DNA from: Amphirosellinia nigrospora
Taxonomy: Eukaryota; Ascomycota; Sordariomycetes; Xylariales; Xylariaceae
Assembly (NCBI GenBank): GCA_004123355.1
Contig: SCHM01000001.1
Coordinates: 6,768,193 to 6,832,192 of the forward strand
DNA: 64,000 nt
Direction: 5' to 3'
In this document: positions 13,818 through 61,771 of the stretch, piece after piece
How the letters are laid out: each line of letters opens with the position of its first letter
Position numbering within the stretch: position 1 is the first letter of the stretch
Notes under the pieces: generated by a model
Databases searched by the model: none
Seen by the model: the letters and a program-made list of their open reading frames with translations, nothing else
What the model was told of the DNA's origin: nothing
Made by a program: the position numbers and the translations under genes

Positions 13818-13959
13818 CCCAAGAAGTGCATCATATTCTAGTATTGGGCTCCACCACCGTTTTCGCTCGACCCCGATCTTCCCCCTCATCCTCGTCGTCT
13901 TAATATCTTAATATTCGTTCTCCTCGTGGGCCTACTGCCTGGTAGGACACCACCTTACG

Positions 13960-15190
<1,231 letters not shown>

Positions 15191-31315: not shown

Positions 31316-33639
31316 ATGGTTGCGATCAAGTCGGTAGCTGCCGTTGCGGCACTCTCGCTCTTCAACACAGCTCAGGCTTGGTACAACGACCTACCTTCGT
31401 GCCTCTCGCCTTTCGAACCATTCGTTTACACAGGATGTTACGACAATGGGCAGCCTGGGCAAAAGGAAGCCCTGAGTCTTCGTAGCGATCTTGATTCACA
31501 GAACATGACTGTTGAGATCTGTGTTGCTCATTGCAAGGGTGAGTAACTCGTTAGCAATTTAGAGGGCGAAGCTTACTTAGCCGTTAGGCAACGACTATCG
31601 GCTGGCTGGTCTGTCGTATTACGGAGTTTGCTACTGCGGGGAGACAGTTTCGACAGCTTTGCTCGCAGAGGATCAGTGCTCGTTTCCTTGCTCTGGTAAC
31701 AGTTCTGAAACTTGTGGCGGAGATTCAGAAATCAACATCTGGATGGACCCGACGTTCCCGCCGCTTAAAGACCAGACAGACACTAGCGAATATGCTTCGG
31801 TTGGATGTTGGACAGATGACTCCAGCGATGGCAAGGCCCTGTTCTACCGGCAGGATAACCTTGACTCTTCCACATTGACGACTGAGAAATGCTTACAGTC
31901 TTGCCTCACTGGCGGTTTCCCATTCGCCGGAACTGAGTATGGTACGTAATTCCGAAGTCACCTGAAAAGACCCTCAAGCTCACCATGTAAACAGGCGGGG
32001 AGTGCTATTGCGGTGTAGTCGTTGGTAATGGCACTAACCTGGCCACCGACTCGTCAACTTGCAACATGCCCTGCAATGGCAATTCCACCCAGACGTGCGG
32101 TGGTCCATCCAGACTTAGTCTTTACGTTGCTAAGGACTTGCAATCCCTTGAGCCATGTGGCACACCCCCTAATACGTCGAGCACCATCACCACGTCCTCT
32201 GTGACCTCGACCACGTCCTCCGTAACCTCGATTACATACCCCGTGTCTTCAACCACGTCCTCCGTGATTTCGACAACATCTTCCACGACTTCGATCACGT
32301 ACCCTGTATCTTCGTCCACATCCTCCGTAACATCGACCAAGTATCCTGTGTCTTCAACTACGTACCCTGTATCCTCGACTACGTCTTCCGTGACTTCGGC
32401 CACGTATCCAGTCTCTTCGACTACGTCAAGCACCATTACCACATCCTCAGTGTCTTCAACTAAGACTCCTGTGACTTCGGCCACGTATCCAGTCTCTTCG
32501 ACTACGTCAAGCACCATTACCACATCCTCAGTGTCTTCAACTAAGACTCCTGTGACTTCGGCCACGTACCCCGTCTCTTCGACTACATCGAGCACCACCA
32601 CCACCACATCATCCGTGTCGTCAACCAAGACTTCTGCGACTTCGGCCACGTATCCCGTATCTTCGACCACGTCCTCCGTGTCTTCAACCAAGACTCCTGT
32701 GACTTCAATCACGTACCCTGTGTCTTCGACTACGTCTTCTGTGACTTCGACTAAGTCTTCCGTCACTTCTGCCACATACCCTGTATCTACGACCAAGTAC
32801 CCTGTATCTTCAACTACAACCACGAGCGCCCCTGTTTGTACAACCACAACTGTGACGCCGCCAACATGTGAATACAAAGTTGGCAAATGGTGCTCGAATC
32901 CCATCCCCGACTGGCATGATAATAAGGGCTGCCTCCAATCCTGGTCCCAGTGTACACTCCAAAGTACCAGTTGCTTCCTGAACGCCGGGTTCCCTGATTC
33001 ATTGCAGTGCTTGGACTATTCGGGCTGGTGCTCTAATCTTAACCTTTATTGTCTCACAAGTTGCTTGTTAGGCTCATGCGACGGCAAGTCCGCATTCATT
33101 AAGAAGTCCCCTCCCAAGAGCGGTGGTTATCCCACCACCCAGACTTCTACATACCCATGCCCAACCACTATCAAAACCACTACGACGAAGACCACGACCA
33201 CGACAACAGCCGGATATCCGACATCCAGCTGCCCCGTCGCAACGCCTACGGGAATCTGCGTCCAGCCCACCAACTGGCAGTACGGATACGCCCCCGGCAA
33301 GCCAGTGGGAGGAATCGATCTCCCCATCGTGACGTGCAACAACATCAAGGACGACTACAACTCGGGCAATGTCTTCAAGCTGTACACTGACCAGGATAGC
33401 AACAAGTGCCCATCGTACCCCCGGCCCCAGTGCCCCAACGCCTGCCAGGACGCCTGCAAGACGCAATATCAGCAAGCGAGTCGGTCTACGCCGAGGGTTG
33501 CAGGAGCGGTAGCTTCAATCAGCGTTACGGCGATGCTGATGCGGCATGCAAGGCCCAGTACAATGACTGTTTGACTGTCAACAAGAACGTCAAGGGTAAC
33601 GGGCAGTGCACCACCTGGTCTGACGGCTGCTCGTACTAA
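31316..33639 (+). CDS. Secreted WSC-domain protein with Ser/Thr-rich repeats (one apparent frameshift)
   Basis: Exons 31316-31538, 31588-31941 and 31995-33639; introns of 49 and 53 bases (GTGAGT, GTACGT) both join phase-1 Gly codons. With one base added near 33475 the product is 740 residues. The start was chosen for the signal peptide (MVAIKSVAAVAALSLFNTAQA). Two WSC domains follow (about 35-130 and 150-255), each with the typical spacing ending in YCG and CxGNSSxTCGG-like segments. WSC domains bind wall polysaccharides. A Ser/Thr/Val-rich region (about 265-500) with 27-residue repeats is surely O-mannosylated in life if secreted. The C-terminus is Cys-rich (WCSNPIPDW, ACKTQYQQ, then YAEGC, CTTWSDGCSY). 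No transmembrane helix is seen, so secretion or wall attachment is inferred. The frame change loses a Cys-containing repeat unless corrected. Confidence 0.82.
32190..32830 (+). repeat. Ser/Thr-coding tandem repeats in the WSC protein
   Basis: Imperfect repeats of words such as tcctccgtgtcttcaac encode TSSVSST and ATYPVSSTT units. One 81-base (27-codon) period is nearly exact: copies begin at about 32401 and 32482 and start a third time at about 32563. The period keeps the reading frame. Confidence 0.85.
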
Positions 33640-34293
33640 TTTCGGACGGAGCTTAGTTCTAGTGTTACAGCTAGGAGGTGTATGCCTTGGGTGCAAGAAG
33701 AAGTGAGTTTCAGCAAGGTGTTGGTGGAGATTAAAATCTGGCTTATGGATGATGATGAGTAATCATAATGTAAAGGTAGAAGGGAAGGGCTTTTGTTCAA
33801 ATCCTCTACATTGACGAACTAAAGCTATGCGGTTATGACGAGGGTTACGCTGTATTGTTTGCTTATGTGTATATCTATTTATAACAGATATAAACTACAA
33901 TATGAGATTAATGCTCAGCAATTTCAATCGATTTCTTTTACATGATATGGATACCTACCTCCTAATGTTTCGGGTGAACATAACAGCAATAACTGCCTAC
34001 TTACTAGTCGGGTCAACTTCGACGCGCAAGCCATTCTTTTACCCCACAGAACGGTTCCTCCGCAAAAAGGGGCCCTGCCTTCGCGGTCGAAAAATGAACA
34101 AGGTTTAACTGATCCTGTAAGCGGAGCAAGAAGTATGCGCATGTTTGAGCAATTTACATAGCGTTGTCTGTAGTGGGGGCTTGGCGGTGTTTGTAGATTT
34201 TCTAAACCAGAGCATGGTCGTTTGTTTTGTTTATCAAGAAAACTTCCCCTCTCATCAGCTTTTGAGCGAGGCCTTAGGTAGACGGAATCAGTA
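33640..34293. other. Intergenic region
   Basis: Holds the WSC gene 3' flank and the promoter of the ATG22-family gene. AT-rich around 33860-33960; nothing else is seen. Confidence 0.55.
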
Positions 34294-35852
34294 ATGATGA
34301 ATACTAAGCCTGCAAAAGAGGGAGTCGAGCTCCTGGATTTGGGGGATGCGATCGGCGGCGGCCCGCAAGCCTCAATACTTTCACGGAAGCAATTACGGCG
34401 TTACGAAACAGGATACTTCATGTCAACTTTTGCAATTGGCCCTCCGTTTGCGTCTTTCGTGACATATGTCGGCTTCCAACTTCAAAATATCGGTTACGTG
34501 GTAGGGCACGCTCCGGGGGAAGCGCCTCGCTCGGGATGCCTTCCCACGGCGACGTCTTGCCGGGTACCGTTTGCTGGATCGGGAGATGTTAATCTCACTT
34601 CCTATGTCCTCTACTTAAACGCGATTATCTATGCCTTGAGCGGAGGTCTTACGCTAATCATATCTGGCATTGGAGATTACCTCAACTACCAACGTGAACA
34701 ATACATTGTTCAGTTGATCATATATGGGGTCCTATGTTTACCAATCGCCAGTCTAAGGGCAGTGATTTGATGACTTTCAATACATTATCGGCGCTATACG
34801 TGGTCTTTAACGTCATAGGATTCATAGCTGGCGCATGGATGAATATTTTCATACCGTTCGTGATGCACAAGTCGGAAGAGGCGGAATCTCCATCACCCCA
34901 ACAGGCCTCTAACAGCGACGAAGATCTTGCGAGGAAATCTATTGAGGATGGCATGAGAATGGGAGTTTGGGGCTCTAATGGTCTAAGCGCAGGCCAAATT
35001 GTTCTATATATCATTTCCCTCGGTCTGACATTTGTCTCTGCGTCGTACGCTGGACTTTATACGACAACGGCGGCGGGCGCGCTCTGTATTGTGATTTCTC
35101 TCCTAGCCTGGCGCTTGTTACCTGCCCCGAAGCCCAAGAGTGAGCAAAGGAGTAAGACTAGTCGAGACTGGCTAATGCTTCCATTGACGACTTTCTCGCT
35201 CCTATTTCGGCAAATCTGGGAGTATCCAGAGTCCTTTAAGTATCTCCTGGCTTATACGGTGTACACCGATACGGTATTTGCTTTCAGTACGGTCACTGCT
35301 CAGTTATTCAACCTCAACATCCGCCCGAGCTTGCGTGAGTTCACCTACTACTCGCTCGTTCAGCCAGGTGCTGCAATAATCAGCGCCACAGTCTTCCTGT
35401 ACGCCCGGCCAACGGTGAAGAATTATCTCGGGATGACACTGCGGCACTGGACAATCATCTGCTACGCAGTTACCTGCTTCTGCACTCTCTGGTGTGCCAT
35501 CGGAATCTCGCCTTCGGTCAGCATCGGGTTCAAGCACCGCTGGGAATTCTACTTCTTCCAATCTCTGCAGTCGATCGCCGCAAGTATAGCCGGCGTCGCT
35601 TTCAGGGTTCTTTTCTCGAGGCTTTTCCCGCAGGGCAAGGAGATCCAGTTCTTCGGATTCCAGCTTGTCCTCTCCCTCGGTACGGTATGGATCCCTCAAA
35701 TCGTAAACGGGCCGATCGTCGATGCGACAAATAACCTCCGGTTGCCTGCTGCGATAAGCTCAGTACTTCTATTATTCTGCGTTGCTATCACGATGACAGT
35801 CGATGAGCGGAAAGGTATGCAGCAAGCGGGGTATGAAAGTTTTGGCGATTGA
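34294..35852 (+). CDS. ATG22-family vacuolar transporter (one apparent frameshift)
   Basis: An intronless gene whose frame changes once near 34757. With one base added the product is 519 residues, within the usual ATG22-family range. Several hydrophobic membrane segments are visible, with conserved blocks LTLIISGIGDY, TLSALYVVFNVIGFIAGAW, MGVWGSNGLSAGQIV and FKYLLAYTVYTDTVFAF. ATG22 proteins are MFS-type permeases of the vacuole that export amino acids released by autophagy; fungi often carry paralogues, so this need not be the canonical Atg22. The break separates the first four membrane segments from the rest, which would destroy the protein if real. No GT-AG pair around the break restores the frame, so an intron does not explain it. 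Confidence 0.8.
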
Positions 35853-38366: not shown

Positions 38367-38780
38367 TTACGCGTCCCTAAAGCTGTAGTTAGTACAATTT
38401 ACACCGGAAATACTTGACTACAGCGAAAAAGACATAGCCAACACTTACAAGAGAGACAGTGTCAGATCTCCGTGTAGTCGAGCCTTCAATGTGACCTCGA
38501 CTTCAATATTTAGATCAAGTCGTAGTTTGAGCGTGTCACTCTTGCCATCATCGCCTCCTTGTGATTGCTGCTGCTGCATCATCATCTGCTGTTGTTGCGC
38601 CATCTGCATCTGTTGCTGCTGTTGCCAGACTTGGTTCGGGTCTTCCATCTGCTGCACGGCATTCTGCTGACCCTTGTTCTTGCGCCCACGACGACGACGG
38701 TTCGGTGAACGAGAAGGGGAGACAGAACTCTCTGTTGCGCTCTCGGCGTAGGGCGCTGGCTTGGCTTCGGTTTCAGACAT
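38367..38780 (-). CDS. Small Gln-rich protein with conserved C-terminal block
   Basis: Two exons, 38780-38449 and 38376-38367, give 113 residues; the 72-base intron has a GTAAGT donor, a TACTAAC branch site and a CTTTAG acceptor, leaving only ten coding bases in exon 2. The middle has a basic patch (SPNRRRRGRKNKG) and a Gln/Met-rich tract; the end has a conserved-looking block, LKLRLDLNIEVEVTLKARLHGDLTL. Similar short proteins are common in filamentous ascomycetes but I know no function for them. If the intron is not used the protein ends at LSLL, with the same conserved block. Confidence 0.7.
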
Positions 38781-39504: not shown

Positions 39505-41222
39505 TTAAGCAGAAGGGAACTCGTTCATTGTCTGTCGCATTGCTGATTCAGGAGTATTTGCAAAGACGCAACCTCCCGTCCCATTGACTATATGAGTGAT
39601 CTCGCTGCCGGCTGTCCCGGTCAACCACACAGTCGTCATGTGTCGCAATCTGACGCCGTCAGGGGCTTCAGGAACTTCAATCGCGTTCTCAAGCTTCGTG
39701 GGCGAGTCGCGGAAATACGAGTAGATACCTAACCCCCAAGCTTCATGATTCGTCACTGTATCGGCGACCTTATACGAGGCGAACCCATTAGTCGAGCCGC
39801 ACATCCACGACGTTTGGTCGGTGGGTCGTAAGGGAGCTCAGACTGATAAAAGTATACTCTGCCGCCGTTCCCATTCCAGAGAGTTTGGTATTCTTTATGA
39901 TGCTCGTTGAATAACCCGTATATTGTTACGTCGTTCCCGCTAACCACGATTCCGTTTTTCGTTGGGTTAGAGTCCCATGCTGCTCCGTCCCCGTGGTCGG
40001 CACGCCACAACCATAACTGGTCTCCAATGACATTGTGGCTATTGACTGTGATGCCAACATCATTCTTACAGTGGCCAGCCGTACGGACAGTCAGGTCATA
40101 GAGAACCGTGGGGTTAGCGCCATGGTTGGCGGAGCTATCTCGAGGTCCAATCTCAACAAGAGTTGGCGATGTGATCTCGTCAGCATCAATGATCAGGCCC
40201 GCTATCGTTACCCCATCCACGTCGGCCACAGAAATCGCCGGACCTCCATGGATGGGAATAAGTGACGGCTGGCCTAACCCAAGCAAAATAGTATCTGGAT
40301 TACCTACTTGCAAGGTGTTGTTGAGCTTGTAGATACCAGGCGTGAAGAGAATATGCTTTTTTGTTTCCAAAGCCGCGTTGATGACAGCGCTCGCGTCTGT
40401 CGGATGCGCTATATAGAAGTCACCAATCGGGATAGACTTACCGGGCGTGGCGTTACCGTCGACCCAGCTCGGCCCCTGAGTATTTTGCTGCAGGCTAGGG
40501 ACGAAGATCTCATACTGGTCTTGGTCATTGACACATAAAAATGGCTTTTCTCGAATCTGTGGCGTCCAGCTTATGGTGGTGTAGGGCTTTGTTGGAAAGT
40601 CATCCTGTGACGGGGCATTCGAATCTCCAACAAATACCATGTTCCATACACCGTTAGCCCAGCTACCGTACTTGTTGTTTCGCGATAGCCACTGCTGCTG
40701 CGAGCCCGGCAGCACCACGTTATCAACGACCGAATCGGCCATGAAGCCGCCCGAAGCCCAACCTCCGGCCCCGGTCTCCGGATCAACCTGGAATAGCCAG
40801 AGACCACCGGAGCTCTTGACATGCATGCGTCGAATTGGAGCTGCCTGGGACACCGCTATTGTAGTTGTCTTGTTGGTAACAGAGGAAGCATTAATTGAGA
40901 AATTCTCGAGAGTACGCCAGAAGTTGCATGTGGCATTGCGGTGGGACATCCAATACGCGGGAACATTGACACCACCGTCAATGAGCACGTCGTCCGGGTT
41001 CCGGCCCAGGCCCGCAACCTGCGTATAGAAGCCAACATCGAAGAGGATGCTGTAGGTCCCTGGCTTGAATAACAATGCGTAACGTTCTGTGCCAAATTCG
41101 TTGGCCTCCATCTGTTTGAAGATGGCTGTCACCTTGTCTTGTATGGTTGCCATCGGCATGCCGGGATCAAACACATAAACATTTGAACCGAATATTGTGC
41201 TGTTCGCCATCGAGATCTGCAC
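39505..41222 (-). CDS. Parallel beta-helix carbohydrate-active protein (pectate-lyase/GH55-like fold; one apparent frameshift)
   Basis: Read from 41222 down to 39505 with one base added near 39814, the product is 572 residues. The sequence has the look of a secreted beta-helix enzyme: TERYALLFKPGTYS, DVGFYTQVAGLGRNPDDV, QQQWLSRNNKYGSW, ILFTPGIYKLNNTLQ and a series of short strands (VDGVTIAGLIID, NDVGITVNSHNVIGDQLWLW). Relatives that I recall are fungal and actinobacterial and are often loosely annotated; the substrate is unknown to me. The start at 41222 is provisional: no signal peptide is visible, and an in-frame stop lies shortly upstream, so an upstream exon encoding a secretion signal is likely (acceptor-like TGTCAG and CTCAG occur just before). 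The gene has no introns in the part read. Confidence 0.68.
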
Positions 41223-41768
41223 CTGCTGAGTTTTGGTATTGGCCTCTCACTGACATAAAATGGTATCAAATTAATATTATACGCGCTTAACTTGCACTTG
41301 GAAACATAGAAAGGCGTCATTGAATCAGTACGAACGAAGGACCTATATTACTACCCCGCCAATTAATAGCACTGTGTAGGTATCTTACCCACCATTCTAT
41401 CGACTACAACTACAACTCGCAATTTATCGACGGTTTCATGCTATAAGATGATAATGATTGCAGAGGTTAAGGTTTCGAATTTGGAACAATTTTCATTGAA
41501 ATTCTATATTTAAGTAATGAAATATTTAATGGCCATACACTTGTAAGAAACTTATTCTACGCGCTGCCTGGTCTAAGTAGATGGGTAATCAGCCTTGCCC
41601 GGATGTATGAGGTTTGGCTTACGCGGAGCTTTGATAAGGTAGCCTAACTGTAAGACAACAATTTCTCGGTGCTAGCTATGACGGACCCCAGATCTCTCGG
41701 TTGTTTCGTCACGACTTGGGCATATGGCAAACTATCTCTTGCGGGTGGTTACGATTGCGAAGAGAACA
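41223..41768. other. Intergenic region
   Basis: May contain the missing first exon of the beta-helix gene near its left end; AT-rich from 41450 to 41540. Nothing else is seen. Confidence 0.45.
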
Positions 41769-45957: not shown

Positions 45958-47447
45958 ATGCATTTCCCAACACGCTCGGCCTGGGCCACCACATTGGCCT
46001 GCATCACTCTCGTTAGTCATACCTTGGCCTTCCGCAATGTCATGTATATCGATGAGCAAGTCACCCTGCTGTCCTTATGGTGTTACTAACCTGAGCTAAC
46101 GTGTGTTCCTTAGATGGCACCCTGACATACCAGCCAACGCTAACATGACCACCGGTATCACGCACGTCACAGTAGCTTTTGTCGATCCGATGAATTTCTC
46201 CGCAACGGCTCAGCTTCCTACCCCTCCTCTCATGTCAGTCAGCGAGCTGCGCAAACACTTCAACAACGGCACGAAGGTCGGTATTGCCCTTGGTGGTTGG
46301 GGGCCATTTTCAACCAGCTTCAGCTCGGTATCAACGGTAGAGAATCGAACCGCATTTGCGATCAACCTGGCGACCTGGGTAGATAAGCAGGGATATGACT
46401 ATGTTGGTAAGTGATATTCAATGCGCCCAAGGGCCAAGCCTGTCACCTTTCAACCCCCATCTCCCTACTGCACCTTGATTATACCATTAGTCTGACTCCG
46501 TACTTAGATATCGACTGGAGTACCCAGGCGGAAACGGGGCTGAAAAGTCAATGAACGCGACGGCAGAGGTTGAAAATTTCCCTCTACTTTGGCGCAATGA
46601 GGAAGGAGCTCAAACACCAAGCCATCAGTCTCGCCGTAGCCGGCACGCCGGTTGGAATGGAAGCGTTCAAGTCTGCCGAACAGACGAAACCCATCTGGGA
46701 CAACGTCGACTTCGTTACCATCATGGCGTACGACTTTATCAATCGCGCCAGTAATGCCACCGGGCATCACACAGATGTCGCGTCCGCACGCGTAGCGGTG
46801 CAGAGATATATTGACCTCGGCCTGCCCGCCGAGAAGATCAACCTCGGTTTCGCATTCTACGCCAAGTACTTCGAGGTGAATGAGACTTGTAGTCGGTGTA
46901 TGCTTCCAAGTGGATGCCCTATCCTGCCCGCTCAAGATAGCTTCGGCAAGGATACATACACGAGCGGCGTTCTCACCTTTGAATCGAAGAATATGGCACG
47001 CCCAGCTGTGCCGTCTACGCTGCAGGAAAGCACCAATGGAATGTGTGGTTTCAACAACGGTACGCTCACTTCTAAATGCCCAGGGTCTTATTGCTGTAGC
47101 GAGGCCGGGTGGTGCGGCGACGAAAAGGCACACTGCGTTCCAGACTGCCAGGTCGGATACGGTCGCTGTGACGGCCCAGATGTCATAGCATCCTTCCAAA
47201 GGGCACGGGCGAATCCCATCTTTGATCGTAAAAATGGCGGCGTGTGGTATTTCGACGAAACCACTAGCCCGAAGCTTTTCTGGACCTGGGAGACGACGGA
47301 CACCATGACAAGAAAGTTTCACGAGATCGTCTACTCTCCAACACAAAAGCTGGGAGGCGTATCGGCTGGTCGCTGGGAGAAAATAGTGGCGGGTGGGAAT
47401 ATGTCCAACACGTGCAGAAACTCATCCGCGCTTCTGGGTGTTCATGA
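45958..47447 (+). CDS. Secreted GH18 chitinase with chitin-binding module (three apparent indels)
   Basis: Exons 45958-46055, 46114-46406 and 46508-47447. The first intron (58 bases) is GC-AG with donor GCAAGT; the second (101 bases) is GTAAGT-CTTAG. With corrections near 46518 (one base missing), about 46580 (one extra) and 47367 (one missing) the product is 443 residues. A signal peptide (about 1-24) precedes FRNVMYIDEWHPDIP; VGIALGGWG and the catalytic motif DYVDIDWE (DxxDxDxE) follow, then FVTIMAYDF and LGFAFYAKYF. A hevein-type chitin-binding module, CPGSYCCSEAGWCGDEKAHC, lies in the C-terminal third, and the corrected end gives GVSAWSLGENSGGW, typical of the GH18 barrel. It hydrolyses beta-1,4 chitin outside the cell. 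The first indel falls just before the catalytic Glu. Uncorrected, the last frame would run on to 47529. Confidence 0.85.
46056..46113 (+). other. GC-AG intron in the chitinase gene
   Basis: The donor is GCAAGT, the strict consensus for GC donors; CTAAC branch-like words occur at 46085-46100 and the acceptor is CCTTAG. Splicing yields MYIDEWHPDIP, the expected family sequence. The only nearby GT donors either shift the frame or delete the conserved YIDE segment. Confidence 0.8.
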
Positions 47448-48998
47448 TGGAAGGCCACCACTGGTATACTACGGGGCGACGATTGATGGCTTATACACCT
47501 ACCATCCAGACTGTGCTGTCGCGTGCTAACGTTTACACATGCTTAAGCTATTACTAAACTGCCTAGGACGCGCTCTGGAGTATTAGATGGATCTAGACTG
47601 AACTGTACATTACGTGTATTACTTCATCGACTTTGGGGAATGAAGCGGCTGGTCCGCGCTGACATCAATCGTGGACATACGAGAGGCTAATGTGCGGGTG
47701 AGCTCATTCTAAGACATGCATGATTCTGCTTGTAGCCTTAGGCTATGAATGTATTCTATTATATTTGTCCCATCTGTCCCATTTGTGATTGATTTTGAAG
47801 CTCTTGCAATTCCTTCCTTTCTATCTCTCGCTCTCTCTCTCATAAAATAAAGTAAAATGGAAAAATAATGGCTTATGCATTTGTCGATATCCTCTCTAGC
47901 ACGTCACGAGGATCAGGAGCTTTGAAAGGGGATTACACGAGAGTAGATGATTGACAGCCAAGAGCGGTATGCCTCCTCAACACTTACCCCGGCTCCCGCT
48001 CCCCACGACATCTCAAAGGGCCTCCGCATGAAGCTGTTTACCGGACCAATCAAGCTGCTTCAATGTTTGAGGCCTACGGGGTCCGTTCGCGCCAAGTATT
48101 CAAAACGTGACCGAGTATATCCCTTATTAACTGATACTAAGATGTGGATGGCTAGGCATACTCCGAGACAGCCAATCTTGGGTGTGCGCGAGCCATGGGG
48201 AGAAGTGAAGTAAGCCGGGGTGGGAGGCAGGCTTAGATATCATGCAATATGACTAGAAGACTGAGGCGGAACATTCTCATAAAATCTTGACGTGGTTCGT
48301 GGAAAAGCAAGGGAAAGTGAGATTTTCATCATATTGCAGATCTCACCGCATGAGAAGCACACTGCCACACAGATGCAGCATTATAGCCCCCAACCTGTTC
48401 TAGGCAGCGCCGGCATATCTGGTCGCGCGACGGTGCGATAACCTATGCTTGTCAGATATTGAGGCTAGACACTATACCACGTACGAGACTGATGTCACGA
48501 AAAAACGGCCCCCAAATACATGCAATAGGGCTGGTTGTCCCACCACCGGCATGTAATGTTGGTGCCCAGAAGCAGGATATGCAGTTGTATTGGACGACAT
48601 GCATCCGTTGTTGTATGTATGGCTCGACGAAGTGCGCTCCGCTCCAATCAGTCACGATGCAGCCGATACACCAACTCTCGTAAGTTTTACGGCACATACC
48701 CCGCAGGAAAGAGACGGAGCGGACAGGGAAGCCAGTGAGAGACGGCCAACGAGAATGTTCTTCATTCGTGCCTCAAAGACGGCACCGACACGCTAGTGAT
48801 GCGGTGACGCTTACCACGCATCTCCTCCCTGGCCTAGAACTCCTGCCGTTGGCTCTGGCAGGATGAAGGCCGAATATTTATCTCGCTGGGATTCCACGCA
48901 TAGGAACCCAGCCGTCTCTCTTCTATAGTCGATAAAACCTTGCGGGACGAAACCGGACCTATAGCAAGCCCCTGCCCTTCTGTTCACACCACGCTACA
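47448..48998. other. Intergenic region
   Basis: Chitinase 3' flank and upstream region of the 306-residue protein. Short CT repeats lie at about 47820-47842. The small open frames show no recognisable motifs. Confidence 0.5.
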
Positions 48999-50432: not shown

Positions 50433-51436
50433 TCATCTATATGTTCCGGCCTCAGAAGACCGAGAAGGGGTGAATTGTGATAAATCACTTCTGTACGTGG
50501 CTGGGGAAATCATCTCGGGCGTGACGGACCGTCCTGGACTCAGGCTTTGTCCGTGAGCTTGATCGGAATACCCCAGGTAAGTTGTGCTAGCGGGAAGTTC
50601 GACAGCCGTCTGCCGCGTGTCAGATTCGTTTCCCAGCTCTGCCAGCAGCGGCATGCCGGTTCCGTCCTTCTTATCCTGGTTGATGGCGGTATAGCCCGGC
50701 GCCGCATACCCGGCATGTGGTTTCCAGGCAGGAGCTAACTCAGCTGGCGCTTGTTGCGTATTGTCCTGTGCATATTCGTGACGTGGCTGGGTTGGTATGG
50801 CAATACCACCCTCGCCGCCGTATGCGGACCCAGGCCCTCCACCGGATGTGTCGTTGCTATGGACTGACTGTGCAAAGCGTCGCTTCCTTTGGTACGCCCA
50901 TATAAACCATGCTGCGAGCGCGACTACAACGACGCCGAATCCCACGCCCACGCCTATGCCAATCTTAGTGCCGGTGCTCAGACCATCGTCTGATGTTTGG
51001 CCTGAGTTTGTGGGTGTTGGGGAAGTGGATGAATCTGTTTTCGTCGGGGTCGAAGTCGAGGTCGGAGTCCAGGTCGAGGTAGTTTGGGTGGCCGCCGTCG
51101 CTGCTGCTAGGAAAGCGTCCATTGACACGGAGAGCGTCACACCCGTCCCCGCGCAATTGGATGACAACATCTGGTAGACTGCGGTGACATCCTTGGGGCT
51201 TTGCTTTGCGACACAACTTGCTGTATTATAAACAAAGTTGTTTCGATTTTTGCACAGACATTGATTGAGATCGGCCCCAGAATCGGCCGAGCTGCAGCCA
51301 GCTTTGTCTGCTTCATCGTACAAGCATGACTGGGAACCCTGGGGTAGCCCGAGAAATCGTTACCTATGGCCAACGAGGAACCAGTTTGGAGAAGTAGGAT
51401 GAGGAGTAGAGGTGTAGGAAGAAGGAGTGTCTTCAT
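50433..51436 (-). CDS. CFEM-like Cys-rich membrane protein (one apparent frameshift)
   Basis: Read from 51436 to 50433 with one base added in the GGGG run at 51341-51344 the product is 334 residues. A signal peptide (about 1-23, Leu-rich MKTLLLPTPLLLILLLQ) starts in one frame; the Cys-rich domain follows in the next (SQSCLYDEADKAGC, NQCLC, TASCVAKQSP, SNCAG). A Thr/Ser/Pro-rich stalk, a transmembrane helix (about 170-192, VGVGFGVVVVALAAWFIWAY) and a basic QRKRR precede a cytoplasmic tail. The first cysteine of the usual CFEM CxxxC start is replaced by Gly in the corrected reading. The layout is that of the gene at 25334-26353. Likely a cell-surface sensor or wall-linked protein. Without correction the signal peptide would not be joined to the domain. 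Confidence 0.75.
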
Positions 51437-53476
51437 GGTTTGTTTAAAGCTGTGGTCGTCCAGTCCGGTCCGGCCTGCTACTCTCTATCCTACGATCTGG
51501 GGACTGTTCACTAGCCAACGGTATTACACGGGTATTACGCGATGCCCATAAGATATCAAGCTGGTTCTGGTTTCGTGTGGCACGTTGCGTTGCGTTTCTT
51601 GGAGGGGGTTGTCGCGTGAGGATGGTGTCGTAATTCTAGAATAAGTCGATATCTGTGTCGGTACTCGTGCCAGTCTACATGAAATAATGGTGTTGTAATG
51701 GGGGCAACAGTGTCTCAATCACGTCAGGGTTTGGAAGAAGAGACGGAGGGAATGAATACACTGTAAGTTGCAAGTTGGTTAGTGCACTCCACAATCTTGA
51801 GATGGCCGGGTTTCTGCCCCATAATTCGGGTACTAGTGTGCGCTAGCACGTCGTATATGTGGTGGGTTCCGTTCATCATCTCCCGGAAATCTCCTTCCCC
51901 ATTTATTAATTGCCCTGCCGCATATCTCAGCTGAGCCAGACCAGACCAGACCAGACCACAAGTGCCTGTCCGTCCGTCCTTAGACAACGACAACAACGAC
52001 AACAACGACAACAACAAAAGGCCTGCTCAGCCACCTCTGCTCAACCAAAAAATCAGGACTTGACCTAGTGACGGACACCTACCTATATCTTGGGCACTGC
52101 AGGCTATAGCTGTAGGCTGTGAAACGAATAGACCAGCCAGGACCAGCCATAAATGAGATTCAGACGACACATCCGATAGCAGCCCGTCTCCACGTCGCAA
52201 CAGCCCGGCTGCAATCCTTCCACCTATTTAAAGCAACGAGGTAGCTGATTCGCTTGCGGCTCTGCAAGCTCATTGCGATATGCAAGCTAATCCCTGTGGC
52301 CAGGCAAGCCTCCAAAAGTCCTACCTCCTCTTTTCGTAGTCTAGGCCTATTGTGGCACACCATCACCATCAGCTTTTCCCTCTGCCTTTTCACTAAACCA
52401 GCCCAGCCAAGTAAGTGCTGTAAGTGGTCCGAGTTCGCCTATGCGTTATCTAGGCCGGTAGTACAAGACCTGTAATGATGATGACAGCCATCGTCATCAT
52501 GCCCTTGAACGCGTACTATAAGGATACTAAGTACATTGTGCAGACATAGTAATTGTTCTATGATTAGTCTATGTTGATTTGATACTATTTCTGAGACAAG
52601 GCGCTCTTGTAGCACAATATACCCTACTTTTCGCCGTTACTTCGAATAATAGTATAGCTGATTTCGCAGTTGATTCAAACACGCAAATAAAAACCTTGAA
52701 AATTAGGGAGAAGACAGAAAATTGCTATTTTGGTATTATAAATTATAGAAATAGATTTCAATTTATTTCTTTTGTTGTATTCGACTGTGTTATTCGATTA
52801 CAGAGTAGTAGCATTCAAGAGGGCCGGGGTACATACAAGCGTGGTGTTTTGTTGCGCCCTACCTACAAGGCAAATATCCTTGTCGGGCTATCCCCATTTC
52901 GCCAGCGTCGGATATACGAGATCCCTTCTTATTGGGCGGGCTGAAAACTTGTTGGTTGTAGCACAACAGCAGTGTGATGCATCATCTCGTTCGGAGGAGT
53001 AGTATGATAGATACATGGGTATGGACAATGTTGGATCAAAGTCTTCTAGGGTTAAAACAAGTATGTACTTGCATGAATATCTAATGTACTGTTGGTCCGC
53101 AGCCTGACCTACTTCCAGACCATTTCTAGACTCGTCGTGACATAACATTGACATATACGCTGACATTAGAGAGCACGAGGGTGGGCCCCCAATCCAAGGA
53201 TGAGAGCCGTAAGCAGCCAATCAAAAGCCAAAAAAACTCCATCCATGAAGCCAGATGAATGGTGTATGTGGGTGGTAGTCACTCGTAGATCAGTGACAAC
53301 AAAAGAAACCCAGCCCAAGGGCAGAAACCTCATTCCAGACAGAACGTGCAGTCATTATTGACGCTGAATTCGGATATCATACATAAGGAGGACGGTCATT
53401 GAGGTGTAGAGTGCATCGCGTTTGGGGGCATGAGAAATTCAACAGCAGGATTCGTTAGATCCGGCGGATGCATGAG
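51437..53476. other. Intergenic region with two microsatellites
   Basis: Upstream of the CFEM-like gene and downstream of the Hos4-like gene. Simple repeats occur at 51937-51957 (agacc units) and 51985-52016 (cgacaacaa units). The part from 52560 to 52800 is AT-rich. No gene is supported. Confidence 0.55.
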
Positions 53477-56400
53477 TTAGTGGTCGTTGTCGCCGGTTAT
53501 TCCATTGGGTAACGTGCCTGGCGACCCCAAGTTTCTGCGGAATCCGTTCACGAGATATGTATGGGGAGACACGCTTGTTGGAGAAAGATTTTCCCCAGCA
53601 TACTCTGTAGGTTCGTTCGAGGCCATACTTTTTGGTGTCAAATGAGACCCATTCAAGACCGATTGTTTTTGTTGTTCCGTCAAAAGATAAGCCAGGTTTT
53701 GTTCGATGCAAAGACGTGCGTAATCAGGTTCATCTGGAGTGACTGCCACTAATCCATTCCTCCTGGGTACTCTGTGTTCAGGGAAAGGCTCTCGGCTCAG
53801 CCTGTATTTCCCCGGTTTCTCCTCGCCAACGAGTTGCCCGTTGATGTAATATTTGTTCCTCGGTGCGAAGGATCCTCGGCTGGCCGCGTCTGGATCTTGT
53901 TTCCATTTACTCGGACCAGTGAAGGTAGAGAGGTCCGATTCGTTCTCTGGAAGTTCGCGGTAGCAGATGGCAATTCTGACATCGGAAAGGTGAGGAATCG
54001 ATGGTATGATACGGAGGAAGTCAGTTTCCTTCAACACGGTCAGCACAGGAACACGATGATGCAGAGCAGTGGCAGAACCAGAACTTACTTTGACGAAGAA
54101 CATTTCCGTCTCAAGGAAACGATTTGCTGCCTCGCCACGGATTTGTTCAAGCTTTCGGTAACCAACAGTACGTGGATCTCCACCGTAAAAGTTCGGGAGT
54201 TGTTCTCCTAGATGGTAGAGTTTGCCTTCTGTTAAAGCATATCGATCCTGCTCTAAACGCCATATAACCCTTTTTGCGATGCTGGACACAGAGATCCGTT
54301 CCCAGGAGGCATCTACGTTTCATTCAGTCAGTCGGTGTCTAGTACAAGTAAAATCGATGTAGCCACTTACATTGTGCTAATGAAAGGTCCTTCTCCCCTA
54401 GAAGAAGAGCTACTTGGGTATTAAGAAGCCATTGGTCGCGCCCGCCTGGCTTGCTGGTCGCCGATGGATCGATAGTGTCATATCGAACCCCTTGCGCTTT
54501 AGCGAAGAGCTCCGCAGTTTCTCTTTGTCTAGGATTTGGACAGCCATCGAGCCAACGCAAAAGGGGCGGCAGTTTTGAGACACGAATTCGCTCTTGCTCT
54601 GCTTGTCGAGCTCGTTGCAACTCAGCCTCACGCGCAGCCTGTTCGGCCCGCTCACGTTCCTTCTCCTGGCGCTCTTGTTCTTCTCGGATGCGACGAGCTT
54701 CTTCCGCTGCCTCTTTTTCTCGTTGAATTCTTTCTTCTTCCTCACGTTCCCTCCGCTCTTGCTCCTCCCTCTGCTTTCGTTCGTCTTCCTCCCGCTGCTT
54801 GCGCTCTTCTTCTTCCCGTCGTTTGCGTTCTTCCTCTTCTCTTAGCCTCTGTTCCTCTTCCAACCGGGCCTTTTCCGCCAATTCCTTACGTTTTATTTCT
54901 TCATGTTCAAGGCGGACGCGTTCTTCGGCTTCCAGACGTTTTTTCTCAGCTTCCAGCTCCTTTTGTTTGACCTCTTCCTCTTGTTTCCTTCTCTCCCGTT
55001 CCTGTAGCTCGCGTTCAGCATCCTTCCTCCGAGCTTCATCATGGGCAGAAGAATCCAACAGGGCCTTTCTTCGGTACTTCTTAGCGTCTTCTTTCTCAGA
55101 ATCAGCTTGTATCTCACCTTCCTCCTCAGATACTTGAATTGTATCCCGCATCTCTACATCAAGTTCCTCCGAAGCAACAGTGATGCTTTTATCAGAGTTA
55201 GGTAGCTTCTCTGATTCTCTATGATCACGATTTTTTTACTTAATTTTGGTGCCTCCTCACGATCATTATCATGGGGCGTTGACGTTGAGTAGGGTCGCGA
55301 GACAGTTCCCGTTTTGTATGGCGACGTTCTGGTGACGGAGGTTCCAAGTACCGTCTGTCTTTAGCATCGGAGTCAAGCTTTCGTCGCTTCAGGGGTGCAC
55401 CGTTTTCTTCCTTTTCACCAGCTCCACGCCTGGAGGGGCTTGTACTAGAACGATGTCTTTTCCCCGGAAGATCAGTACTGGGGAGCCGGTCAGTTGACTC
55501 CTCGCGTCTGAGGGCCTTTGTCCGGCTAAGATGCTTGTCGCGGTCGCCTCTAGACTTTTCTGACTCGTCATTTTTAGACTCTGGACGGTCGATTCCTGAA
55601 ATGTTCGACGCCATGCTTTCACGACGCTGTTTCTCCCGTTGGCCTTTCAGATCCTTTCCTGAGATTAGCTTACGTCGCGGTTTTATAGCTTCACCATCAG
55701 AAGACCCCGCTACTTCCGGTTCGATCAATTTTGGCATGGCGGGATTTTTCGACCGTACAGGTGAAATTTCGCGATCTGATGATGCAGTGTTTGAGCCTCG
55801 TTCATCTCGTCTAGGGCGACCGGGTCCACGTTTAGAAGTCTGCTCATCCTGAGTACTGAGAGAGAGTGAGCGGCGTTTCTCCCGAGGGCTTTTTGTAGAC
55901 TTGGCGGGGTTAAGTTTCTTTCTAGGTTCGGGGTCACGGGACGGGCTAACTGAAGTCCGTCGCTTCTGCGACCGAGATACGTCAGGGGTGGGTTCGTTCC
56001 GGGTGGCCCGTCTTGAGTCCGTGTCGAGTTCCCGTTCCCGTTCTCGCCGGCTAGGAGAAGGTTTCGTCTTCGACGAGCCCTTAGAATTTCGATTATAATG
56101 GTCATAAGCTTCTTTCAATAAATGCTCCTCTTCTTTCCAGTTCGGACCCTCTCGACGACGAGCGATTTCATAATACGTCTGTCCCTTAAAAAGACGTGTT
56201 GGATTAAACTTAGTAGCATTCAGAAGCAGCTTAATAACTTCAATATTTTCCTGTCCAATTGCTGCAAGCATCGGGGTCGAGTGTTCTCCTGGAAGACTGG
56301 ATACTGGTCGAGGATCGGGGTTCGCACCGCCTAAAGCTAGAAGAAGCTCCACAACTAGATTATGACCTCCTCGTGCTGCATTCACCAAAGCCTCGGGGTC

Positions 56401-58140
56401 ATCGCAACGCTCCTTGACCTGTAACACGCGCGTAACGGTTTCATTGTCACCGCGAGCCGCGGCCTGCCGGAGAGTTTTGTCATCGAGGTTCATGTAAAGC
56501 AAATGATTACTGGTCTTCGTCGAGCGCACAGTTCCGCCGCGACGCTTCTCTGCGAGGAGACTGCCTATAGGAGCAGCCGGGGAATCGCGCGGGCTATCAG
56601 GTCCATGAGACGAGAGAGTATCATGTATATCCTGAAGTTGGTGATCTTCAGAGGCACGATGCAGTTCGCCTACACGTTCCTTCGCCTCCTGGAGAGCTGC
56701 GCGGATTTCCTCTGCGTTATCTAGATCGTCCGGAACTTTCTCTAGAGGTTCGTGCCCTTCTGCATCTGCCTTTCGGGGATTGACACCAGCTTTCAGCAAC
56801 AGTTTGACTACAGCTAGATGGCCATTTTCTACCGCGTCTAAAAGGGAGTTTCCTTGTCACTGTTGCGGCAGTCCAGGTTGCAGCCTGCCTCAATCAACAG
56901 CTGGACGATTTTCTCATGGCCGTTCAAAGATGCGACCTGCAAAGGGGTGTTCCTGCATAATCCGCAAAATTCAAATCCTCCGGCCTTTCAGCAAGACGTT
57001 TCCTGGCGGTTTCATACTCGCCCTTCGCACAAGCCTTCGCAAAGAGTGTCTGCTGCCATGATTATCAACATGTTTCTTATGAGCCGGCATCCTGGCAGGC
57101 GATATGGTTGATTCGCCCGTAAGTGGGGTAGCGATACTTTTCAATTTAGAACTCCTGGGGTGCGGGCTACCACTTGCCGAGGAGTCATCTGATTGATACT
57201 CGGTGGATTGGAGGGGAGCAGGGATACGTCGCTTTTTATTGCTTAAGCCATTCGAAGATTGGGAGGGCAGCTGCGTAGAGATGCTACGGCGGTGTATGCG
57301 ACCAGGTGGTGAAGCGGATCGATTCCTTGCGGCGGATTGCCTATCTGCGTGCCTCCCGACCAACATTCTGTGATCTCTCTCTCGGGCGCCAATCAACGCA
57401 TCAATACCAGCATCCGAGGCGCGTGAGCGCCGAGCCTTGCGCACCTCGCCATCGTCTTCCGACTCCGTCTTAACTGCCTTTCTTTTACCGGAAAGAAGCC
57501 TCTCTACTGACTTGGCCTTATCCTTGCGTGATATCTTATGCGACCGCGACTTGGACGATTCGGACTCAGACTCGGAATGAACATCGCCAGATTTGCGACG
57601 CCTGTGCAAAGAGACGTTGGCGCGATTATGAATTGGTGGAGAGGTAGGGGCGGAACCAGGCGCACCGGAATTATTGTTGACTCGTTGGCTTTCTTTTTCG
57701 GCATGTCGCTTCTTTTTTGCCCCGAAAGAAATTGAGGTGGCATCATCAGAGTGACCACCATTGCGATCTGTATCTTTCGTGGTTTTCAAGAGCTTCCTGG
57801 GTCGTGGAATACTATTTATCTCATCGTCACTCTTGTCCTCATGTTTGATGACTTTTCGGGGCTTCGACGGAGATATGCCATCCTTTCCGGGTAAGACGAT
57901 CGTCTCCGCATCGGAGTTCTGATCAAGCGCAGCATCGTCTTCTAGCGTGGCAGATACGACTGTCACAGGCCGGGCATCCTTGATTGAAGGTGGAAACTTG
58001 GCGTTCGTTGGTGATTTGAGCGTGTTCGTAGCGGGAGCAGAGGTCGGCTTCGGCTTGAGGGTGTCAGAGCCTGTGTCTCCTCCCTTGGGGGAAGCGAGCT
58101 GCTTCGTACTTGAGGACTCGGCAGCATTCTGCGCATCCAT
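53477..58140 (-). CDS. hos4: Hos4-like ankyrin-repeat subunit of the Set3 histone deacetylase complex (five apparent frameshifts)
   Basis: One gene read from 58140 to 53477 with a 58-base intron (54313-54370, GTAAGT...CGTAG). Five single-base additions near 57055, 56950, 56843, 55274 and 55234 give exactly 1537 codons (1536 residues). The N-terminus (1-355) is Ser/Lys-rich and disordered. Ankyrin block 1 (about 358-470) restores NTPLQVASLNGHEKIV and ETPLLDAVENGHLAVVKLLL; block 2 (about 548-665) has LRQAAARGDNETVTRVL and STPMLAAIGQENIEVIKLLL. A disordered basic region, a Glu/Arg coiled coil (about 1000-1185) and a conserved C-terminal region beginning LPPLLRWLDGCPNPRQ follow. Hos4 is the ankyrin subunit of Set3C, which represses or delays transcription in the nucleus. 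The family assignment rests on the ankyrin block and overall layout. Read literally the gene appears as four unrelated frames. Confidence 0.78.
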
Positions 58141-59913
58141 AGCATTTAATTTATATACCAGGCTCTCATACAGTACACCATGGTGGCCACTCGTCGACGA
58201 CGTTGGCTAGTATTCGCGACGACGGGGGAGGGCCTGGGGCAAATGGTTCTACACCGTCGCTGACGTCTCGTGCTGTCGGTGTCAGGCCAAACAAGTCGGT
58301 GCAGTCGGTCGCGAGTCAAGATAGAGCAGTCGAAGGCCAGGGAACGAGAACAACGGTGGCGGCCGCCGGGCGAAAGATTGGCTGGAGTTAGCACTACGGT
58401 CGGGCAAACGTGTACTAAGACAAGGCGTTATTGCTGTTGAGCCTTGATATCACTGGAAAATAGGTAGATAGGTAACGAGAGCGGATTGGAGAATGGTATT
58501 TTGTGGTAGGTGAGAAGAGAATTGAGAGAGTGCTAGGAAAAGAGAAGGATGCACAAGACCACCAGAAGAGAAGAGCGGGAGCACGGTTTGCAGATACATA
58601 GGTAGGTAGGTACCACGCAGTAGGTTAGAGACGGACCGCTGCACCAGCCGCGATTGTGCCTCTGCACAGGGGAATTACAGGGACCGCAATTAGGTAGTGT
58701 AAGGTCTAAGGCAGAGCTTGAACAGAGGGGAGGGGCGGTGATTGCCTACCTACAGGTACCTCCTTAGGTACCTCTTACCTCTGACCTCTACCTGAGCATC
58801 GTACATGTACATGGTGGACATGTGTCCGGCACCACTTTCAGCACCACTTTGAAGGCAGGGTACCCACCAGGCTCCTTCAAAAGAGGCGCGGCCATTCCTG
58901 TTACGGCCTAGAGCCTGGGCTACGAGTGGTGGGCTAGGCCGTGCTAGTCGGCTTTCTGCTAGCCCATGTCACTGCACCAGGGCGTCCAAGCAGCGCTCTG
59001 CAATTCGATGCACCTTGGTCTTGGTGTTGCTGGATGCTGGATGCTGCCTGGAGATTGGTGATTGGCCAGCCTGCATACAAAGGCCGGTATTGCCGCAAAA
59101 TTGCACTTTGTCGCCCACTTTGTCGCCCCCTGTGTAGCCTGTCCAAGACCCAAGCAGGCCCAAGGTCCAAGTTAAAAAAGGATGGCGAGATGGGGCCCGC
59201 CTCCTCTTTCCTTCACCCGGCCCTGTCTCCTGTCCTGTTCAGTCCTGTCCCTCAACTTTCTTACGGTGCATTATCTTCCAACAACTGACTCCTCGTTCCA
59301 TGAAATCCAGGCAGTCAGGCAGTCCGGCATTTCCTTCGTGCTGTCTGTGTGTACTATTTTGTCTGCTGAGTATCTGATGAGTATCTGATGATGGCCGAAA
59401 TCCCGGGTTGACAAATTTGGCTGTGCTCACGAAGGGCCACTCGACGCTACACTAGGCGCATCGCGCTACGGAGGCGATCATCAGGCCAACTCAACAAACT
59501 GATCCTCGCCCCCACCTTGGTTGTTGGTTTATCTTTCTATTGATTTCTAGGATCGAGGATCGAGCATAGGTGTCACATACGTACGCAGTCCATCTGCGAG
59601 CCTTGTGCAACGCAACGATCACTCTCTCTCAACTGCGTACTCGAGGTTCCCTGTCGATTGACAAGTTCGAGATCAAATTTCCAGTTCTCTAACGTCGGGA
59701 ACAGCAGCCACTCTTCCAGACCCTCATCCCATTTACCGCCACCCACCTCGTAGGAAACCAAGTCAACCCCAGACAACTACCTTCGTGAGCGACTTCACTG
59801 ATAGAGCCAGTCCTCGTCGAACCTTTGTACACCGTTACGATACCTCCCCTAGGACAAAGTACATGTGTGCATAGCGCCAGAGATCAGCCTATGACCGTGA
59901 TTTACCCTTATAC
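58141..59913. other. Divergent intergenic region between Hos4-like and AlkB-like genes
   Basis: Holds both promoters. TAGGTACC-type words cluster at about 58590-58615 and 58745-58795. Short direct repeats, such as caccactttcagcaccactttg near 58835 and tgctggatgctggatgctg near 59029, are seen. No gene is supported. Confidence 0.55.
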
Positions 59914-60714
59914 TTGACCCCTATCTATGAGATCTTTGCCATAGATAACAATGGACACACCAAGCAAACCCTCACTACCCCATCCCTTAATCATGCACGA
60001 GTGCTGCAGTTACCCTCCTCCGCTTTCTACATATCCGAGTTCATTACCGAAGACGAAGAAAAGTCCATACTTGAGAAGATAGCCTCGGCGCCGAAGCCAC
60101 AATGGAAGCAGCTACGTCGACGCCGATTGCAGACCTGGCCATCGGATCTTATCAATAACAAGGTGGTAGACGCACCCCTACCATCATGGCTTGAGGAGCC
60201 CATTGTTACGCGACTGCTTTCGCTCCGTCTAGATGCAGATGCAGACTTGCATTCCCACATTTTCTCCGACAGTCCTCACAAACGCCCAAATCACGTACTC
60301 ATCAATGAATATTCACCGGGTACTGGTATAATGGCCCACAAAGACGGCGCTGCTTATCATGCAGTCGTCTGTACAGTCAGCCTCGGTGCTAGCATCTGTC
60401 TAAATATTCACGAGATGAAGGAGAATGGCGCGCTCAACAACAATCCGATTTGGAGAATCTTACAAGAACCTAGAAGTCTTCTAATCACAACTGCAGACCT
60501 CTACACCGATTATCTCCACGGCATCGACGACATTATGAAAGACATCAACTTATCAGAAGAGACAGTTGCGAATTGGTCCTTGTTGAGACCCAGTTCGATA
60601 TTTCACAACAGCCAGAACTTACGCCAAACGCGAACTAGTCTAACCTACCGAGACGTGCTAAATGTCTCCAGGCTAGGAAACAAACTCGGTATTCTATTCA
60701 ACCAGCCAAAGTGA
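59914..60714 (+). CDS. AlkB-like 2-oxoglutarate/Fe(II) dioxygenase (ALKBH6-type); 5' end unresolved
   Basis: An open frame of about 266 codons up to the TGA at 60712-60714. The fold signature of the AlkB superfamily is present: AFYISEFITEDEEKSIL, WKQLRRRRLQTWP, RPNHVLINEYSPGTGIMAHKDG with the iron-binding HxD, VCTVSLGASICLNIHE, a later DYLHGI supplying the second His, and an Arg in LTYRDV for 2-oxoglutarate. This order resembles ALKBH6. Substrates of that subgroup are not well established. No ATG occurs in frame before the conserved part: the frame is open back to about 59875, and ATGs at 59891 and 59927 are out of frame. The true start is either in an upstream exon or hidden by an indel. The gene converges with the reductase at 60740, stop codons 25 bases apart. 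Confidence 0.82.
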   Translation: MTPIYEIFAIDNNGHTKQTLTTPSLNHARVLQLPSSAFYISEFITEDEEKSILEKIASAPKPQWKQLRRRRLQTWPSDLINNKVVDAPLPSWLEEPIVTRLLSLRLDADADLHSHIFSDSPHKRPNHVLINEYSPGTGIMAHKDGAAYHAVVCTVSLGASICLNIHEMKENGALNNNPIWRILQEPRSLLITTADLYTDYLHGIDDIMKDINLSEETVANWSLLRPSSIFHNSQNLRQTRTSLTYRDVLNVSRLGNKLGILFNQPK

Positions 60715-60739
60715 CATGATTCGCCTAGACAAGCCGAAT

Positions 60740-61771
60740 TCAAAACACAACTGGTATCATCTTCCATTTCCCTTGAACCTTGTTGCCAAACTTCTCGTTA
60801 TACCATATTTTGGTTCCGTTGGCAGTGACACCAAGATTGACCGAAACGAACAAGCATGCGCAAGCGAGAGTCCGGTTGTATAACTGACCTTGAGGAGCCG
60901 CCAATACCGCCATTGAGAGGTAGAGCAAGCATTCGCAGGTATAGTGCGGGGACGAAGTACCGAAACAATCCCTCGTCTGGAAGCGAGTATTTTTTTAGTC
61001 CAGCAAGATACCGGTGGCACCGATATTGCGTGGACCATGCCATCAGAAATACGAAGCTTGCAATGACTGATTTCAAAGGCGGAAACTCGATACCTGGACA
61101 GCTCTGGCCAGAACAATGTATCGCCCCTATGTCTTCAGTCAATACAAGGTGAGACCTCACGTAGGCGAGCATTGCAACATACCGGATCCTTCAACCCAGA
61201 TCGATACACTGGTACATAAGTAAAAGCCATTTCCCAACAGCCAATGGATAATCCACATGCTAGAAGATGACGGTCGTAAGACAGCCAAGTACTCGTACAG
61301 CCGTCTCGCTCCCTGTAAGCCCATCAGAAACCAGGCCAGAGCAACTTGGCTCATGGTCATGGATGATGTACATTTGTCCAACTGATGCCTAACGATGAGT
61401 TCCAACACGGCTCCGTTGATCCCGAATTGGATGACCCAGAATATTGTGCAGGATACAGAGAGGATATAAAAGTGAATGAACCAGGAATGCGGGATTTGGC
61501 CCACAGATGTAAGGCAAGAAATGAGATGAAAGAGAGGTCCTGGGTTGCTGCTGTCAAGTTCTCGGCCAGTAGTTTTGCGGCCTGGAGGGGAAGCCGAAGC
61601 TGAGGTGTTACGAGAGTTTCTTGCACCATAATGTGTCAGTAGCCGCTGTGTTGTATCTGGCACTGCCGCGACTCCCAGCACGGCTGCCGCGCTCAGTACA
61701 TAGAAGAGTTGACAGATTTGTGCCGGACTTTGGTCTGTGATTATATCACAGATATAGGCCACTATCTTCAT
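60740..61771 (-). CDS. dfg10: Polyprenol/polyprenal reductase, steroid 5-alpha-reductase family (Dfg10/SRD5A3; one apparent frameshift)
   Basis: Exons 61771-61183 and 61093-60740; the 89-base intron begins GTATGT and ends GTCCAG. Removing one base in the CCCC run (60948-60951 on the plus strand) gives 313 residues, a normal length. Conserved blocks: IPHSWFIHFYILS, MSQVALAWFLMGLQGARRLYE, then after the intron QYRCHRYLAGLKKYSLPDEG, and after correction VPHYTCECLLYLS, then FVSVNLGVTANGTKIWYNEKF and the conserved tail KWKMIPVVF. Several hydrophobic helices are consistent with an ER membrane enzyme. The family works in the last step of dolichol formation, needed for N-glycosylation and GPI anchors. 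Uncorrected, the frame ends about 50 codons early with an unrelated tail. Confidence 0.88.

What the first reader, a model, noticed from the sequence alone, without database searches (positions are those of the whole stretch)
31316..61771. Thirteen one-base frame disruptions confined to the right half of the window
Seven genes between 31 and 61 kb need one-base corrections (WSC 1, ATG22-like 1, beta-helix 1, chitinase 3, CFEM-like 1, Hos4-like 5, Dfg10 1), while six conserved genes in 0-26 kb need none. Eleven are missing bases and two are extra; many lie in or beside runs of 2-7 identical bases. Corrected models have whole codon counts and recover family motifs. The simplest reading is indel error in sequencing or assembly that varies along the contig; genuine decay of Hos4, Dfg10 and surface genes together is less likely.
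Basis: partly seen in the sequence, partly recalled or inferred. Interest (0 to 1): 0.7.

Follow-up and report, generated by a model that had tools for sequence, protein, structure and literature searches.

The report
One-base assembly errors break genes
Single-base gaps and insertions that break several genes in this fungal-type DNA stretch also break genes that a cell can hardly live without elsewhere in the same genome assembly, so they are almost certainly sequencing mistakes and not biology.

Summary
The breaks are in the sequence as deposited. I located 12 of 13; the third chitinase break was not found. Three are fixed by profile or structure matches on both sides with no room for an intron (Atg22-like, GH55-like, one in the Hos4-like gene) and two by a match on one side (Dfg10-like, CFEM); seven rest on frame and stop analysis and reading by eye. 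They are confined to the right half only within this window. Across the same 48-Mb assembly, seven conserved families carry 27 such breaks in 58.2 kb aligned, in 17 of 54 loci on six contigs, 22 missing-type to 5 extra-type. A cell could hardly live with these genes broken, so residual indel error of the assembly is by far the best explanation. Non-coding MITE copies show the same deletion bias, 12 to 2. The rate seems to vary locally: 4 ab initio calls in 31.3 kb of coding on the left against 31-37 in about 40 kb on the right, though the 54 conserved loci are not significantly overdispersed. Its cause is untested. Ordinary artefact.

The parts
31316..33640 (+). WSC-domain gene; one frame change near its 3' end (zone about 33460-33515)
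   Evidence: WSC domains; frame scan; ab initio call at 33513 at both settings
34297..35852 (+). Atg22-like gene; frame change between 34755 and 34776
   Evidence: PF11700 positions 7-122 and 127-481 in two frames
39508..41246 (-).
   Evidence: 4pew match 20-466 in one frame, 464-549 in another
45958..47529 (+). GH18 chitinase with chitin-binding domain; two frame changes located (zones about 46516-46525 and 46577-46594); the third claimed one not located
   Evidence: PF00704 and PF00187; sequence; frame scan; ab initio call at 46584
50433..51442 (-). CFEM-domain gene; frame change between the signal-peptide stretch and the CFEM domain (zone about 51335-51375)
   Evidence: PF05730; sequence; frame scan
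53480..58206 (-). Hos4-like ankyrin gene with DUF7593, found once in the assembly; five frame changes (zones about 57030-57060, 56940-56965, 56838-56862, 55262-55290, 55225-55250)
   Evidence: Ank repeats in two frames; PF24513 matched only here; sequence; frame scan
60739..61771 (-). Dfg10-like gene; frame change near 60955-60970
   Evidence: PF02544 positions 86-150 from base 60955; upstream frame by eye
20643..24077 (+). eIF3a gene, one open frame; left-half control
1500..5760 (+). EPL1/PHD gene, frame change fits an intron; left-half control
13946..15362 (+). PP1-type phosphatase gene, frame changes fit introns; left-half control

Best explanation
The breaks are residual single-base insertion/deletion errors, mostly lost bases, in the consensus of an assembly that was not fully corrected, most likely one built from long reads. 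Shown here: they are one-base-type frame changes without room for introns where both sides could be matched; they occur on six contigs in conserved families; and the same deletion bias appears in non-coding repeat copies. Inferred: the error arises in base calling or consensus and was left by incomplete polishing, and the local change of rate reflects uneven coverage or polishing.
For: Seven families in the own genome: 27 breaks in 58.2 kb aligned, in 17 of 54 loci, on C1 and C4-C8; 17 of the 27 have a DNA excess of exactly -1 over the profile; 22 missing-type, 5 extra-type. Hit are 2 of 3 RNA_pol_Rpb2_6 loci, 5 of 10 Cpn60_TCP1 loci, 4 of 10 HSP70 loci and an Rse1-like gene 24 kb past the window end. 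25 MITE copies (about 9.1 kb): 12 private one-base deletions, 2 private insertions, 47 private substitutions. Break zones have somewhat longer homopolymers than random coding zones: mean 3.58 against 3.07, P 0.003; runs of five or more in 5 of 26 zones against 1.7 expected, P 0.025. Published precedent in a fungus assembled from nanopore reads (PMC7500977, passages read).
Against: No reads, transcripts or second assembly could be examined. The homopolymer association is weak: 15 of 26 zones have no run longer than three. MITE deletions could be true mutations, and substitutions outnumber indels. tRNA-synt_1 showed 0 breaks in 8.0 kb. One of the 27 counted junctions overlaps by 284 bases with stops inside and is weak. 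No error-free fungal genome was put through the same rule as a negative control. Essentiality is recalled, not tested.
Confidence: 0.96

Rival explanations
1. Genuine decay: the seven window genes are pseudogenes in this strain.
For: The broken window genes are of kinds that are usually dispensable (recalled), while eIF3a and the PP1-type gene in the window are unbroken.
Against: The same kind of break occurs in conserved, mostly essential families elsewhere in the assembly. The Hos4-like gene keeps strong profile matches around its breaks and DUF7593 was matched nowhere else.
Confidence: 0.02
2. Missed introns or wrong gene models only.
For: 32 of 69 profile junctions in the seven families look intron-like, and my first count took some short-gap introns for breaks.
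Against: The 27 counted junctions overlap or are at most 11 bases apart; in the window the Atg22, GH55 and one Hos4 junction leave at most 20 bases.
Confidence: 0.01
3. Programmed ribosomal frameshifting used widely by this organism.
For: Breaks are frequent and occur in conserved families.
Against: Both directions occur, 22 to 5, and 37 of the 54 loci of the same families show no break; run lengths at the sites differ; non-coding MITE copies show the same deletion bias. A shared shift motif was not searched for.
Confidence: 0.005

Closest known systems
Residual indel error in long-read-only assemblies, e.g. nanopore-only Drechmeria coniospora (PMC7500977, passages read)
   Same: Fungal assembly; small indels shift frames in conserved genes; error rates differed between genes without a clear pattern; short-read polishing brought the genes back.
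   Different: There the errors were mainly in homopolymers and polishing brought more insertions than deletions; here missing bases dominate and the homopolymer link is weak. The paper says the concern does not apply to PacBio-only fungal genomes. The platform of this assembly is unknown.
Gene-fragmenting errors in long-read assemblies of small genomes (Kastor, PMC12007338; start of abstract seen in a search listing)
   Same: Apparent pseudogenes created by indel error.
   Different: That tool compares draft assemblies with curated references; no relative of this genome was available here.

Membership tests
Consensus indel artefact of a long-read assembly | Single-base-type frame changes with no room for an intron | tested here: met
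Consensus indel artefact of a long-read assembly | Spread over the assembly, including genes that must work | tested here: met
   27 breaks, 17 of 54 loci, six contigs; essentiality recalled
Consensus indel artefact of a long-read assembly | Also in non-coding DNA with the same bias | tested here: met
   12 deletions to 2 insertions private to single MITE copies; true mutation not excluded there
Consensus indel artefact of a long-read assembly | Enrichment in homopolymers | tested here: inconclusive
   mean longest run 3.58 against 3.07, P 0.003; runs of four or more 11 of 26 against 7.0 expected, P 0.054; five or more 5 against 1.7, P 0.025
Consensus indel artefact of a long-read assembly | Breaks absent from reads or transcripts | not testable with these tools
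   no reads held
Pseudogene decay | Restricted to dispensable genes | tested here: not met
   chaperonin, HSP70, RNA polymerase and Rse1-like loci broken; essentiality recalled
Programmed frameshifting | One direction of shift | tested here: not met
   22 missing-type and 5 extra-type
Programmed frameshifting | A recurring shift motif | not tested
   only run lengths were compared

The most novel reading that the evidence does not exclude
The organism really carries about one frame change per two kilobases of conserved coding DNA, in essential genes too, and decodes them by pervasive ribosomal frameshifting or transcript editing, with block-wise differences along its chromosomes.
Probability: 0.004. 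Interest if true: 0.95.

Novelty: not a real feature. Interest (0 to 1): 0.1.

Why it matters
Gene-loss or pseudogene claims drawn from this assembly (chitinase, CFEM, WSC, Hos4, Dfg10) would be unsafe, and automatic annotation will split or truncate many of its proteins. If the breaks in essential genes were genuine, it would change how this organism is thought to read its genes, but nothing here favours that.

Tried and rejected
Ab initio scan for frame changes: the first version chained false introns and was dropped. The second was calibrated on synthetic genes: 0 and 2 false calls in 60.1 kb, and 32 of 40 and 39 of 40 planted changes found, at the strict and lax settings. On the real window it does much worse: of the 12 located breaks the strict setting found 2, and the lax one 3 inside their zones and 2 more within about 60 bases. 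So I use it only to compare regions. Its lax right-side count also holds a call at 38378 that is not among the located breaks, and its left-side count holds calls at 13020 and 13505 where no family was matched. Six right-side calls lie in a Tc5-like transposase relic in L013 that may really be decayed; numbers are given with and without it.

Second copies as a cause of failed polishing: a 10-kb piece found only matches of at most 69 bases elsewhere, but that search did not list the window itself, so it is weak. DUF7593 of the Hos4-like gene has no second copy.

First junction count took short-gap introns for breaks; the rule replaced it and left 10 of 69 junctions unclassified, among them a chaperonin locus (C4:2.61 Mb) whose pieces overlap in different frames; its zone is still one of the 26. 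One search failed for Dfg10; one search settled it. Solved-structure searches of the Dfg10 pieces gave nothing useful. NCBIfam gave nothing useful, Rfam no match, ARAGORN no tRNA.

Full report
What was claimed. Thirteen one-base frame disruptions in seven genes in 31-61 kb, none in six conserved genes in 0-26 kb, read as sequencing or assembly indel error.

Setting. The window lies at C1:6768193-6832192 of a 48.1-Mb, 11-contig assembly with fungal-type genes. No relatives of it are held and it gives no file, so the tests use the assembly itself, profile libraries and solved structures.

Check of the breaks. Broken genes were scanned in three frames with X at stops. The Atg22 profile changes frame between bases 34755 and 34776. 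The 'beta-helix' gene matches the solved chain 4pew (E 3.5e-133) in one frame up to chain residue 466 and in another from 464 on, meeting at bases 39813/39822 (the name GH55 is recalled; no Pfam family was matched at E up to 5). In the Hos4-like gene, ankyrin repeats lie in two frames 14 bases apart, and DUF7593 is split by what looks like an ordinary intron. These three breaks have matches on both sides. For the Dfg10-like gene the C-terminal Steroid_dh part lies in one frame from 60955 (E 3.7e-5), and the upstream frame was read by eye. The CFEM domain lies in a different frame from its signal-peptide stretch, read by eye. The remaining seven located breaks (WSC 1, chitinase 2, Hos4-like 4) rest on reading by eye and on the frame/stop scan. 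That scan found different frames before and after 11 of the 12 located breaks, 10 missing-type and 1 extra-type, with a negative coding score on one side in 4 of the 11, and failed for Dfg10. The third chitinase break was not found.

Left half. eIF3a is one open frame of 1144 codons; an EPL1/PHD gene, a PP1-type phosphatase and an Rdx gene change frame only where introns fit. Under a uniform rate over 10.2 and 16.3 kb of predicted coding, all 13 on the right has a chance of 0.0018, but the boundary was chosen after looking.

Is it confined? No. In L014, 20-30 kb beyond the window, the CPSF_A domain of an Rse1-like gene is split between two frames whose DNA ranges overlap by 19 bases. I then searched the whole assembly for seven families: Cpn60_TCP1, HSP70, tRNA-synt_1, CPSF_A, Adaptin_N, Proteasome and RNA_pol_Rpb2_6. 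A break was counted only where consecutive profile pieces lie in different frames, at most 20 bases apart (11 in practice), with a DNA excess of -12 to +9 over the profile. Of 69 junctions, 27 are breaks, 32 intron-like and 10 unclassified. 17 of 54 loci are broken; 58.2 kb aligned; 0.46 per kb; C1 10, C6 7, C8 4, C4 3, C7 2, C5 1; 22 missing-type, 5 extra-type; 17 with an excess of exactly -1. By family: Cpn60_TCP1 7 in 14.2 kb, HSP70 6 in 11.7, tRNA-synt_1 0 in 8.0, CPSF_A 2 in 3.0, Adaptin_N 4 in 11.4, Proteasome 2 in 6.5, RNA_pol_Rpb2_6 6 in 3.4. One of the 27 (C1:6115918) has pieces that overlap by 284 bases with stops inside and is weak. That most of these families are essential, and that most of the loci found are single-copy members, is recalled knowledge. 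A cell with so many of them broken could hardly live, so the breaks belong to the sequence record, not to the organism. No clean fungal genome was available as a negative control for this rule.

Selection-free check. A 363-base MITE at 29336-29698 has 40 scored full-length or nearly full-length places in the assembly, the window's own included. I aligned 25 of the 40 (the window's and the 24 best others, one shortened copy among them and the more diverged ones left out), in two identity groups. Changes private to one copy: 12 one-base deletions, 2 insertions, 47 substitutions. Shared minority states: 80 substitution cells and 6 deletion cells. The deletion bias matches that in genes, but true mutation is not excluded there.

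Sequence context. In 26 break zones (15 outside and 11 inside the window, two Hos4 breaks sharing one zone) the mean longest homopolymer is 3.58 against 3.07 for random coding zones (P 0.003); runs of four or more in 11 against 7.0 expected (P 0.054); five or more in 5 against 1.7 (P 0.025). The link is real but weak; 15 of 26 zones have no run longer than three. I do not name a platform.

Local variation. With the lax setting, the left side (L022, L020, L008-L011 and window 1-31000) has 4 calls in 31.3 kb of predicted coding; the right side (window 31001-64000, L012-L015, L021, L023) has 37 in 40.9 kb, or 31 in about 39.4 kb without a transposase relic; P 4e-6 and 5e-5. Eight loci elsewhere (L002-L007, L016, L017) gave 18 calls in 33.5 kb at the strict setting. 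The scan finds only a part of the real breaks in the window, so rates are rough. Against strong variation: over the 54 conserved loci the breaks are not significantly overdispersed (P 0.094). At the genome-wide rate of the families, zero in 10.2 kb has P 0.009 and 12 or more in 16.3 kb has P 0.083. So local variation is likely, its scale unknown, and the left half is best described as a clean patch in an error-bearing assembly.

Precedent. PMC7500977 (passages read) describes nanopore-only assemblies of a fungus in which most errors were homopolymer indels altering reading frames, with error rates differing between genes without clear pattern, and in which short reads brought the genes back; it exempts PacBio-only fungal genomes from this concern. 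PMC12007338 (start of abstract in the listing) treats gene-fragmenting errors of this kind in small genomes.

Verdict.

Noticed in passing
window 29336-29698: A 363-base MITE with 107-nt terminal inverted repeats (96% complementary); 40 scored places in the assembly, in identity classes of about 98-99%, 89-91% and 76-81%, with one at 85%.
   Followed up: partly
L013:1150-3000: Tc5-type transposase DNA-binding domain in a coding relic with many frame-change calls, possibly truly decayed.
   Followed up: no
window 39508-41246: The GH55-like gene matches the solved chain 4pew at E 3.5e-133 while no Pfam family was matched at E up to 5.
   Followed up: no
window 46056-46133: By eye the first chitinase intron could start with GC at 46056; the ab initio scan instead puts a GT donor at 46082.
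   Followed up: no
window 32170-32850: Thr/Ser-rich repeated linker in the WSC gene (read by eye).
   Followed up: no
L016:6100-8000 and L003:4450-7150: HET-domain genes; in L016 the domain may change frame, but the second piece is weak (E 0.037).
   Followed up: no
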